A stretch of DNA of 64,000 nucleotides from an uncultured Ruminococcus sp. (GTDB taxonomy: Bacteria > Bacillota > Clostridia > Lachnospirales > Lachnospiraceae). The position numbers were made by a program, and so were the translations under genes. Under the pieces are notes generated by a model. That model worked only from the letters and a program-made list of their open reading frames with translations. It searched no databases and was not told where the DNA came from. Position 1 is the first letter of the stretch; each line of letters opens with the position of its first letter. The stretch is taken from assembly GCA_904418845.1 (NCBI GenBank), contig CAJFQC010000009.1, positions 16,741 through 80,740 on the forward strand, in the 5' to 3' direction. Shown here one piece after another: positions 32,192 through 35,690 of this stretch.

Positions 32192-33367
32192 TCAATAATA
32201 TTTTACACTTACAGTGCGACCCATCTTCTCCGCCGTCTTGATGAGCTGATCGACCAGATTCTGCCTCATGCTCAGGTCAAAATTCAATTCAGATTCCTTG
32301 TGCGCGTCGTTGATGGCTGTGCCGACGAAAAGATTTAGCTCCGTGCATTCTTCGATGAGCAGCTTTGCGAGGCGGGAGGCGCCGTTATCTGCATCCAGCT
32401 CATCGAAAAATTCTGCATCAAATTGATCGTTAACATATTTCTTCAAAAGTTTCAGTGCTTTTCCAAGTGTCAGGACACCCTCAGTCACAAGGTCAATGCC
32501 TTCCAATGTCGCTATGGGAGGCACATCAGGGTTGCGGCTGTCTGCTTTTGTGATGATTTCCTTTTCAAGGACGCGGGCAGCGATATTCGCAGTGGTTCCG
32601 CCCGCCACAACTTTCTTACCTTCTGCATGCATGAAGTCATGCATCAGGCGTTCGTCATCCTCTTTGGACCTGGGCGGGCCGGTAAAGATGTTGATCACCC
32701 TGCGCTCGATGACCCGGGCCACCGCAACTGTGGTGTCATCCCCCGGTTTCTCCTCATAGAGTTCGTCGCATGCCTGACTGAGCATGACGGCCAGACGGGA
32801 GGCGGAGAGGGTCTTTTTCGTGCACTTGAGTGTGTATTCTGCCATTGCCTCCCATGTCCATCCCTGGAGGTTTAAGATGGAGCCGGCTCCCGCGTAGATC
32901 ACCCCGTCGCTCATGAGGACAAAGCAGTCATTCTTTCTTACGTGAAAGCGGTACTCGTGTATCTTTTTTCCCTCGATCTCCCTTGTTTCAAACGGGTATT
33001 TAATGATCCTGCCATCACGGATAAAGACGCAGGAGGGGTTGTCGAACTCTACAAGATACGCCTCACCGCTGTGGGAGATCTGTAAAATGGAAAATGTAGC
33101 GTAAGCAACTTTACGTACTTTACAGATGGGAAGCGTCTTGGCGATAGTCTCTACACAGGATTCAATGGCAGCTCCTTCGTAGAGCATGGTGCCGAGGATC
33201 TTGGATGTCAGGGTAGCAAGGATGTTCGCTTTGACGCCGCTCCCCATTCCATCCGCAAGGATCAGGATATCAGAATCCGCGGTCTTCAGGACTTCGACCT
33301 TATCGCCGCAGAGCTCTTCTTTATGTTTGTTCAGACTTTTCCAAGCCACATCAATACTTACGCTCAT
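32192..33367 (-). CDS. SpoIIE/PP2C-type phosphatase paired with a hydrogenase-like sensor
   Basis: 391 residues. The N-terminal two thirds is a SpoIIE-type PP2C domain: ILILADGMGSGVKANILATL, YLVEFDNPSCVFI, CFVLMSDGVIYAG and KPGDDTTVAVARV give the metal Asp and Gly-Asp positions. The last ~150 residues (from NIFTGPPRSKEDDERLM) are an extra C-terminal domain with VVAGGTTANIAARVL that I do not recognise. Start: GAGGAGG is encoded by the final Glu codons of the upstream gene; it is 7 nt before ATG 33367 but only 1 nt before ATG 33373, so 33367 is chosen. With 2 nt between the genes it is surely co-translated with the sensor and likely its output, acting on a phosphoprotein. Confidence 0.85.
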   Translation of the reverse strand: MSVSIDVAWKSLNKHKEELCGDKVEVLKTADSDILILADGMGSGVKANILATLTSKILGTMLYEGAAIESCVETIAKTLPICKVRKVAYATFSILQISHSGEAYLVEFDNPSCVFIRDGRIIKYPFETREIEGKKIHEYRFHVRKNDCFVLMSDGVIYAGAGSILNLQGWTWEAMAEYTLKCTKKTLSASRLAVMLSQACDELYEEKPGDDTTVAVARVIERRVINIFTGPPRSKEDDERLMHDFMHAEGKKVVAGGTTANIAARVLEKEIITKADSRNPDVPPIATLEGIDLVTEGVLTLGKALKLLKKYVNDQFDAEFFDELDADNGASRLAKLLIEECTELNLFVGTAINDAHKESELNFDLSMRQNLVDQLIKTAEKMGRTVSVKYY

Positions 33368-33369
33368 GG

Positions 33370-35079
33370 TCATTCCTCCTCGTTTAAGATGGAATCCCGC
33401 AGCTTTGTTAGAGTTACCTTCGTCTCTGCTGTCGTCTCTCCTAAAAGTCCTGCGATCTCCTGCGCTACCATCATTTGTTTCTCAATGACCTTCTGCGCCA
33501 TCTCCACAGTCTCGACCTTGAGATTATAGTGCTGTTCTTTCACCCTTTCTTCATGAGTTATATCCTGATAGATGACAAGGACCGCATCCAGATTTTCGAT
33601 GTAGACAATCTTTTCCTCTGCGATCAGCTTACCGTTTTCAAGCTCAATCTTTTTATTTAAAATGGGTTCCCTCGTGAGAAGGACTGTCTCGATATCTGCT
33701 GTCTCGATAAACTCAAATATGTACCGCTCGACTGCTTCTTCGTGTCCTACTCCAAGGAGTTCCTGACCTTTCCGGTTGCAGTCCAGTATCTTCATATCGC
33801 TGCCGATGACGAAGATAAAGTTCGGCGTCACATCCATGACTACATTTGACATGGACTCTGCCTGTGCCAGCGCGTAGGGCATACACATTGAGAGTTCCGC
33901 CTTCCCCTGGAATACCGCGATCGCCTTATCCCGGCATGTGGAATATCCGCAGGCTCCACAGTTTAACTCGTCTTCCGCGGAATATTTTCCGGTAGACTGC
34001 AGGATACGTCTGATCTGATCTTCGGACGGCATTACATCTGAAAGGCTGTGATCGCCGAATTCTTTGGCGAGTTCTTCGGAGCTTATATCAGGGAGTTCAC
34101 GCGCTGCCTTGTAGGAGACGACATTTTCAATCTTTACCTTTGTCTTTACATAAGAAGTGTTCCAGTGTGCGGAAGCAGGTCCTTTTGCACATCCGCCCTC
34201 ACAGACGTTGGCCTCGATAAAGCAGTGATCCAGTTCACCCTTTCTCAGACATTCCAGCATCTCCATACAGTTTTCCAGACCATCTACGAATACCTTGTGG
34301 TAACCGTCCGCTTCCTCCTCGGTGATGACAGACTGGATGACGCCGCCGCTGACCGGATAGAGGCGGTTGATCTTTGGGTCGGGATTACCCATCGGCTTAT
34401 CCTCGCAGGCGTGGAGATCGATTCCGGCTTCCTGGAGCCAGTCAGCCAGCTCTTCGAACGTAAGGATCGCGTTGATGGCGCCTTCTACGCGTTCATCCCC
34501 TATGGCCTCCTGCTTCTTTGCGATGCAGGGCCCTAAGAATACGACCTTTACATCCGGGCCGTAGAGCTTCTTGATATATCTCCCGTGGGCGATCATGGGG
34601 GATACGACCGGCGCCATCAGCTTCGTGCAGTCGGGATAATATTTTTCAATCAGGTCGTTTACGCTGGGGCAGCAGGTCGTGATGATGTTCGGCATTTTGT
34701 TCTCACGAACCAGCTTCTTGTACTCGTTTGTGACCAGCGCCGCCCCTTCAGCGGTCTCGCGGACTTCGTAGAAGCCCAGTTTCTGCAAGGCGTCCACCAC
34801 CTGTCCGGGGGTGTCAAATTCCAGTACTCCGGCATAGGAGGGAGCAATGGATATGACCGTTTTTAAATGCTGCCGCAGATAGCCTTTGACGCGCTCAAGA
34901 TCGCTTGCAAATGTCTTCGCGTTCTGGGGACAGACTTCCAGGCACCGCCCGCAGTTGATACAGTGATCTACCATGATACGTGCCTGCTCATCCTTGACGG
35001 ATATGGCTTTGACCGCGCAGTTGCGCACACATTTGTAACAGTGACGGCACTTTGCGTCCTTAAAGTCAATGACTTTCAT
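33370..35079 (-). CDS. PAS-containing [FeFe]-hydrogenase-like sensor (HydS/group C type)
   Basis: 569 residues. Domains: 2[4Fe-4S] ferredoxin (CRHCYKCVRNC, CINCGRCLEVC; residues 10-60), H-cluster domain (about 75-360), a further [4Fe-4S] domain with CGACGYSTC...MC (about 392-425), PAS domain (about 435-535), and a C-terminal helix. The three hydrogenase motifs keep the cluster cysteines but diverge elsewhere: TTCCPSV (for TSCCPGW), GPCIAKKQE (for MPCxxKxxE) and EANVCEGGCAKGP (for ExMACxxGCxxGGG), so the usual Met contacts and Gly run are lost. That, plus PAS and the phosphatase partner, fits the sensory group rather than a bulk H2 enzyme. Start ATG 35079 after AGGAGG, not 35199. Confidence 0.86.
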   Translation of the reverse strand: MKVIDFKDAKCRHCYKCVRNCAVKAISVKDEQARIMVDHCINCGRCLEVCPQNAKTFASDLERVKGYLRQHLKTVISIAPSYAGVLEFDTPGQVVDALQKLGFYEVRETAEGAALVTNEYKKLVRENKMPNIITTCCPSVNDLIEKYYPDCTKLMAPVVSPMIAHGRYIKKLYGPDVKVVFLGPCIAKKQEAIGDERVEGAINAILTFEELADWLQEAGIDLHACEDKPMGNPDPKINRLYPVSGGVIQSVITEEEADGYHKVFVDGLENCMEMLECLRKGELDHCFIEANVCEGGCAKGPASAHWNTSYVKTKVKIENVVSYKAARELPDISSEELAKEFGDHSLSDVMPSEDQIRRILQSTGKYSAEDELNCGACGYSTCRDKAIAVFQGKAELSMCMPYALAQAESMSNVVMDVTPNFIFVIGSDMKILDCNRKGQELLGVGHEEAVERYIFEFIETADIETVLLTREPILNKKIELENGKLIAEEKIVYIENLDAVLVIYQDITHEERVKEQHYNLKVETVEMAQKVIEKQMMVAQEIAGLLGETTAETKVTLTKLRDSILNEEE

Positions 35080-35192
35080 CTTACAAAACCTCCTGTTGTA
35101 TATTTTTACGCACATTATGTCTATAAAATTTATTTTACCAGAGAGGCAGGGGAATATCCAGACTACGTTTTTGTTGTAAAATAAAAAATAAT

Positions 35193-35690
35193 GTGTCATG
35201 CAACTTTTTGGATGATAAACTCCGTCTAATATATGAGAATGTCAGAAAGGGTATCTTGTATAAAACTGCGCGCAGTCATTTTTCAGAGGAAGAAGACATT
35301 GCCGACGCTTTCCAGGACACGATTGAAGCAGCATACCGCACGATTACACATCTGAATAATGCGGAATATTTCAGGACATGGCTTATCCGTATCCTCATCA
35401 ATAAATGTATTGACATTAAGAGGAAAAAACAGAAGGAAAGCCCTGCATTGATATTCCCGGAGGAAGGAGAGACATGCATGGAACTGGCTAACTGTGAATT
35501 TGAAGAACTGATGCGCTCGCTGGATGAAAAATACCGGACAGTTCTTCTTTTGTATTATGGAGAAGGTTTTAAGATCACAGAGATCGCTCAGCTTCTTGAT
35601 ATGGAAGAGAATACGGTGAAATCAAGGCTGTCAAGGGGAAGAGATAAGTTCAGGCAGGTCTGGACGGCCCACAATGTGGCCACAGAATAA
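35193..35690 (+). CDS. ECF-type RNA polymerase sigma factor
   Basis: 165 residues, normal for a small ECF sigma. Region 2 is EEEDIADAFQDTIEAAYRTI with the EYFRTWLIRILINKCID core-binding helix. Region 4 is KYRTVLLLYYGEGFKITEIAQLL followed by MEENTVKSRLSRGRDKFRQ, the -35-binding helix-turn-helix. The start is uncertain: GTG 35193 (or TTG 35208) has no visible Shine-Dalgarno, though the N-terminus matches family length. The following gene, 16 nt downstream with a good AGGAGG, is the expected anti-sigma partner but is broken, so this sigma factor may be unrestrained or dying. It is divergent from the hydrogenase-like sensor (113 nt between). Confidence 0.8.
   Translation: MSCNFLDDKLRLIYENVRKGILYKTARSHFSEEEDIADAFQDTIEAAYRTITHLNNAEYFRTWLIRILINKCIDIKRKKQKESPALIFPEEGETCMELANCEFEELMRSLDEKYRTVLLLYYGEGFKITEIAQLLDMEENTVKSRLSRGRDKFRQVWTAHNVATE

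What the first reader, a model, noticed from the sequence alone, without database searches (positions are those of the whole stretch)
32192..35079. Hydrogenase-like redox sensor fused to PAS and paired with a SpoIIE-type phosphatase
The H-cluster cysteines are all kept (TTCCP, GPCIAK, CEGGC), but the flanking residues that tune catalysis in ordinary [FeFe]-hydrogenases are changed: Met of the MPC and MAC motifs and the Gly-rich run are lost. An extra [4Fe-4S] domain and a PAS domain follow, and the next gene is a PP2C phosphatase with an unrecognised C-terminal domain, two nucleotides away. This looks like a signalling device that reads H2 or redox state and answers by dephosphorylating a protein. 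The phosphoprotein target and the C-terminal domain's role are, as far as I can tell, undefined. Its neighbour nifJ makes the reduced ferredoxin that such a sensor would monitor.
Basis: partly seen in the sequence, partly recalled or inferred. Interest (0 to 1): 0.62.

Follow-up and report, generated by a model that had tools for sequence, protein, structure and literature searches.

The report
Phosphatase-linked hydrogen-sensing hydrogenase gene pair
A gut Lachnospiraceae bacterium carries two coupled genes, a hydrogenase-like sensor with a PAS domain and a SpoIIE-type protein phosphatase, which form a known but barely tested pair thought to let fermenting bacteria feel hydrogen or redox state and adjust their metabolism.

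Summary
At 33370-35079 (-) lies an [FeFe]-hydrogenase homologue (two [4Fe-4S], H-domain, C-terminal [4Fe-4S], PAS), coupled to a SpoIIE/PP2C phosphatase (32192-33373) whose last ~167 residues match no Pfam, NCBIfam or PDB family.

It is not a new kind. HydDB (2016) defined this arrangement as [FeFe] group C3, 'phosphatase-linked (putative)'. The genes also match HfsB and HfsC of the Thermoanaerobacterium hfsABCD operon by architecture and order. In a tree the H-domain lies apart from group A.

Pairing is near-universal: HydS sits directly upstream of the phosphatase in 189 of 191 loci examined across Bacillota, and all 85 sampled class genomes with the HydS C-terminal half also carry the phosphatase.

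New here: (1) the most conserved HydS segment outside its cysteines is a post-PAS helix (AQKVIxKQMxVAQEIASLLGETTAETKxxLTKL), while the phosphatase has no sensor domain of its own, so this tail is the likely contact; (2) the phosphatase C-terminal domain occurs almost only in this pair, except standalone copies between two hydABC operons in one genus; (3) conserved company is a [2Fe-2S] protein, HydABC or HfsD, AdhE and Rex. The window's nifJ is convergent and not conserved. Substrate, ligand and sign of regulation remain unknown.

The parts
33370..35079 (-). hydS: group C (C3-type) sensory [FeFe]-hydrogenase, 569 aa
34915..35058 (-). HydS residues 8-55: two [4Fe-4S] ferredoxin-type clusters
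   Evidence: Pfam Fer4_10; eight invariant Cys
34060..34857 (-). HydS residues 75-340: H-domain with H-cluster ligands C137, C185, C293, C297; C136 = CpI C299, G183 = M353, N291 = M497
33865..33993 (-). HydS residues 363-405: C-terminal [4Fe-4S] domain, Cx2Cx4Cx16C
   Evidence: Pfam PF04060; C374, C377, C382, C399 invariant
33562..33849 (-). HydS residues 411-506: PAS domain
   Evidence: Pfam PAS E 2.5e-5; model pLDDT mostly above 80
33382..33558 (-). HydS residues 508-566: post-PAS helix and hyper-conserved tail motif, proposed contact with the phosphatase
32192..33373 (-). HfsC-like SpoIIE/PP2C phosphatase, 393 aa, translationally coupled to hydS
32708..33373 (-). phosphatase residues 1-222: PP2C (SpoIIE) domain; invariant D41, D156, D212, D213
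32195..32698 (-). phosphatase residues 226-393: uncharacterised alpha/beta C-terminal domain (GPP, GGTT, EG, GxAxNxAH motifs)
   Evidence: no family hit; confident model; profile search
35089..35094 (-). ribosome-binding site AGGAGG of hydS

Best explanation
The locus encodes a group C3 (phosphatase-linked) sensory [FeFe]-hydrogenase and its dedicated SpoIIE-type phosphatase, equivalent to HfsB and HfsC of the hfs operon. Shown by sequence: domain order, kept cluster ligands, intact phosphatase metal-site aspartates, translational coupling and obligate pairing. Inferred: the H-cluster meets H2 or equilibrates with the ferredoxin pool; the state passes through the C-terminal [4Fe-4S] cluster to PAS; PAS moves the long C-terminal helix; the invariant tail of that helix binds the phosphatase in trans, doing what the built-in PAS-coiled-coil linker does in RsbP or RsbU, and switches its activity. 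The phosphatase dephosphorylates an unidentified protein that sets the level or activity of fermentative hydrogenases and AdhE. Its extra C-terminal domain probably adds ligand sensing or substrate recognition.
For: Group and architecture. Published class with the same arrangement: PMC5037454, PMC6776011, PMC11837493. Pairing: adjacent in 80/80, 72/74 and 37/37 loci; genome co-occurrence 85/85. Conserved neighbours [2Fe-2S] protein, HfsD, HydABC, AdhE, Rex. Tail motif 0.84 mean identity against 0.46 for PAS and 0.52 for the H-domain, 0.76 against 0.44 in a broader set; the tail is modelled as one long helix. The phosphatase starts with the PP2C fold and has no N-terminal regulatory region. Coiled-coil linkers control PPM phosphatases, including PAS-bearing RsbP (PMC12143880). 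hfsA or hfsB deletion raises adhE transcript and ethanol, while hfsC or hfsD deletion does not (PMC5707799).
Against: No test of H2 binding, phosphatase activity or HydS-phosphatase contact was found for this clade. The tail-phosphatase contact rests on conservation and single-chain models only; no complex was modelled. hfsD expression alone restores high ethanol in a delta-hfsABCD strain (PMC11837493), so HfsC is not always needed for the known phenotype. The window lacks adjacent hfsA and hfsD.
Confidence: 0.72

Rival explanations
1. HydS senses ferredoxin or cell redox state rather than H2; the H-cluster serves as a low-potential redox element.
For: Two ferredoxin-type clusters, an extra C-terminal cluster, and often a [2Fe-2S] partner gene next door; M353 and M497 positions replaced.
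Against: All four H-cluster ligands are invariant in 107 HydS, and TmHydS and TamHydS do turn over H2 slowly (PMC10055695, PMC8163306), so H2 reactivity is kept.
Confidence: 0.3
2. HydS is a slow catalytic hydrogenase and the phosphatase controls the hydrogenase, not the other way round.
For: The C299-equivalent Cys is kept in the window and in 48/70 class homologues, against 17% of sensory hydrogenases in general (PMC10055695).
Against: The rest of the proton path is changed (S319 position Ala, E282 position Lys); PAS and tail are unexplained; adding this Cys to TmHydS lowered activity (PMC10055695).
Confidence: 0.1
3. The phosphatase is controlled mainly by a metabolite bound to its own C-terminal domain; HydS is a scaffold or second input.
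For: The C-terminal domain is conserved (0.59 mean identity), confidently modelled as alpha/beta, and occurs standalone between hydABC operons (L234-L236); very weak similarity to nucleotide or sugar-phosphate binding folds.
Against: The similarities are not significant; near-total dependence on HydS pairing.
Confidence: 0.2
4. The pair is a partner-switch module acting on an STAS anti-anti-sigma factor, as SpoIIE, RsbU and RsbP do.
For: SpoIIE-type phosphatase; the genome has three STAS and three above-cut-off HATPase_c_2 genes, one HATPase beside the group-D-like hydrogenase.
Against: No STAS or RsbW-like gene emerged as a recurrent neighbour family of the pair in the loci whose neighbours were clustered; the kinase that recurs in some loci is APH-like.
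Confidence: 0.15

Closest known systems
[FeFe]-hydrogenase group C3, phosphatase-linked (HydDB, PMC5037454)
   Same: HydS-type hydrogenase encoded with a serine/threonine phosphatase; proposed H2 sensing
   Different: HydDB gives no mechanism; the HydDB classifier itself was not run here
HfsABCD of Thermoanaerobacterium (PMC5707799, PMC11837493) and HydS/HydA2 of Ruminococcus albus (PMC6776011)
   Same: PAS hydrogenase (HfsB) followed by serine phosphatase (HfsC); many relatives of the window pair show the full A-B-C-D order
   Different: the window keeps only the B and C equivalents: no HfsA homologue in the genome and no HfsD next to the pair; the Hfs sequences themselves were not compared
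Thermotoga maritima HydS (TmHydS)
   Same: domain set and M353-to-Gly change
   Different: C299 position Cys here, Ala in TmHydS; M497 position Asn here, Ser in TmHydS
RsbP/RsbU and SpoIIE PPM phosphatases
   Same: phosphatase fold; PAS and coiled-coil control logic
   Different: sensor and phosphatase are separate chains; extra C-terminal domain

Membership tests
[FeFe]-hydrogenase group C / M2f (C3) | H-cluster ligands and N-terminal two [4Fe-4S] domain | tested here: met
[FeFe]-hydrogenase group C / M2f (C3) | C-terminal Cx2Cx4Cx16C [4Fe-4S] motif followed by PAS | tested here: met
   C374, C377, C382, C399; PAS 411-506
[FeFe]-hydrogenase group C / M2f (C3) | H-domain outside groups A and B | tested here: met
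   tree (branch to the rest 85/71, HydA 100/100); below NCBIfam A and B1 cut-offs
[FeFe]-hydrogenase group C / M2f (C3) | H-domain groups with named group C references (TmHydS, R. albus HydS) | not testable with these tools
[FeFe]-hydrogenase group C / M2f (C3) | linked serine/threonine phosphatase gene | tested here: met
[FeFe]-hydrogenase group C / M2f (C3) | H2 sensing | not testable with these tools
   needs biochemistry
hfsABCD operon | complete A-B-C-D gene set at one locus | tested here: not met
   only the B and C equivalents in the window
SpoIIE-type PPM phosphatase | PP2C fold and metal-site Asp motifs | tested here: met
   Pfam above cut-off; D41, D156, D212, D213 invariant; Foldseek to SpoIIE
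group A catalytic [FeFe]-hydrogenase | groups with CpI and HydA; M353 and M497; intact proton path | tested here: not met
RsbP | PAS, coiled coil and PPM in one chain | tested here: not met
   two separate genes

The most novel reading that the evidence does not exclude
The HydS post-PAS helix is a detachable signalling linker: its nearly invariant tail docks on a separate phosphatase and supplies in trans the coiled-coil switch that other PPM phosphatases carry in cis, while the phosphatase's unclassified C-terminal domain is a hydrogenase-associated sensing domain also used alone in hydABC clusters.
Probability: 0.4. Interest if true: 0.65.

Novelty: new member of a known kind. Interest (0 to 1): 0.4.

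Why it matters
Group C3 pairs are common in fermenting Bacillota (about 30% of sampled genomes of this class) and sit with HydABC, AdhE and Rex, so they probably tune H2 and ethanol output in gut and rumen; hfsB deletion already raises ethanol yield in Thermoanaerobacterium. How any [FeFe]-hydrogenase signals is unsolved. The obligate pairing plus one hyper-conserved tail motif gives a small, directly testable handle on that question.

Tried and rejected
A Rex operator near hydS: nothing above chance. nifJ as functional partner: convergent and not conserved. HfsA elsewhere in the genome: only NuoE-like hydrogenase proteins. Identifying the C-terminal domain by Pfam, NCBIfam and PDB profiles: only insignificant hits. 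The Foldseek search of the full phosphatase listed only PPM phosphatases among the 50 matches shown, so the C-terminal fold stays unassigned. APH-like kinase as obligate partner: it recurs in only some loci; the genome's homologue lies elsewhere, beside coaX-like and coaBC-like genes. A catalytic group A enzyme was rejected.

Full report
What is there. The minus strand carries two coupled genes. hydS (33370-35079) encodes 569 aa; the start at 35079 has an AGGAGG site and is conserved in the nearest relative. The phosphatase gene (32192-33373) follows with a 4-nt overlap, or a 2-nt gap from the start most relatives use. HydS has two N-terminal [4Fe-4S] clusters, an H-domain, a C-terminal [4Fe-4S] domain with Cx2Cx4Cx16C, and a PAS domain. 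The phosphatase has a SpoIIE/PP2C domain (37-221) and about 167 residues that match no family.

Active site. In 107 homologues the four H-cluster ligands never vary. The M353 position is Gly in 103 of 107. The S319 position is mostly Ala and the E282 position mostly Arg or Lys, with Glu in a minority, so the group A proton path is broken. The M497 position varies (Ser or Asn in most of the class, Leu or Met in the wider phylum; Asn in the window). The C299 position is Cys in the window and in 48/70 class homologues, but only 15/37 in the wider phylum sample. TmHydS has Ala there, and Cys occurs in 17% of sensory hydrogenases overall (PMC10055695). My class sample is therefore richer in Cys than the published set, but the window is not unusual for its own clade.

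Group. In a 52-row tree of H-domains the window falls among HydS proteins (with the nearest relatives at 96-100% support), apart from HydA, CpI and T. kivui HydA1 (100/100) and from HfsD plus the genome's own C17 hydrogenase, which is group-B-like. The branch joining all HydS against the rest is weaker (85/71). Named group C references (TmHydS, R. albus HydS) could not be included. NCBIfam scores for groups A and B1 fall far below their cut-offs.

Pairing. The phosphatase, mostly at full length, was found in 87 of 291 genomes of the class (one weak hit there is probably an ordinary SpoIIE). HydS lies directly upstream on the same strand in 72 of 74 class loci, 37 of 37 phylum loci and 80 of 80 named GTDB loci. 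These three samples overlap in a few species, and the 80 named loci are biased towards close relatives. Conversely, all 85 class genomes with a match to the whole HydS C-terminal half also have the phosphatase (my comparison). About ten other genomes match only the C-terminal [4Fe-4S] part, mostly in ~880-aa proteins, and were not pursued.

Company. The recurrent gene order is [2Fe-2S] protein, hydS, phosphatase, then either HfsD or HydC-HydB-HydA, with Rex and AdhE often near. This is the hfsABCD layout. The window has only the B and C equivalents; no HfsA homologue exists in the genome beyond NuoE-like proteins. In several near relatives the pair follows hydABC. nifJ is convergent and not conserved. 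An ECF sigma factor diverges from hydS in the window and in the nearest relatives only.

Mechanism. The strongest new clue is the HydS tail. Residues 529-562 average 0.84 identity to consensus, against 0.46 for PAS and 0.52 for the H-domain; in a wider set 0.76 against 0.44. AlphaFold2 models it as a helix of 39 residues followed by a second helix, though confidence falls to about 60-75 there. The phosphatase begins at its PP2C fold (SpoIIE is the top Foldseek match) and so lacks the N-terminal linker through which RsbU and RsbP are controlled (PMC12143880). I infer that the HydS tail supplies this control in trans. Genetics in T. saccharolyticum supports a regulatory role for HfsA and HfsB upstream of adhE, but later work shows that hfsD alone can restore high ethanol yield, so the sign and target are open.

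C-terminal domain of the phosphatase. It is modelled with high confidence as an alpha/beta domain. A profile search found it in 122 of 399 phylum genomes, nearly always inside an ORF of about 390 aa. Three genomes of one genus carry a standalone copy of 156-159 aa between two hydABC operons (L234-L236). Weak similarity to nucleotide or sugar-phosphate binding folds is not significant.

Verdict. A sound observation of a published class. Its worth lies in the open questions (signal, contact, substrate) and in the handles found here, not in novelty of kind.

Noticed in passing
L037:5674-7422 (genome contig C3): The bifurcating-type HydA reads TSCSPGW: position 300 (CpI numbering), a [4Fe-4S]H ligand Cys, is Ser. 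The same motif occurs in 17 of 24 motif-bearing proteins in named relatives. A similar change was noted in Melainabacteria (PMC3787301).
   Followed up: partly
L037:10881-14369: A second sensory-type hydrogenase of 467 aa with a C-terminal [4Fe-4S] and no PAS (group-D-like), flanked by DRTGG-like proteins, an RsbW-like HATPase and a PHP-like protein, divergent from hydABC. DRTGG and PHP are my reading of the sequences.
   Followed up: partly
L234, L235, L236: Standalone copies of the phosphatase C-terminal domain between two hydABC operons in one genus.
   Followed up: partly
35193-35690 (+): ECF sigma factor gene diverging from hydS, conserved only in the nearest relatives.
   Followed up: partly
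L271:8554-9309: APH-like kinase homologous to the one that accompanies adhE and the hfs genes in some relatives, here at an unlinked locus.
   Followed up: partly
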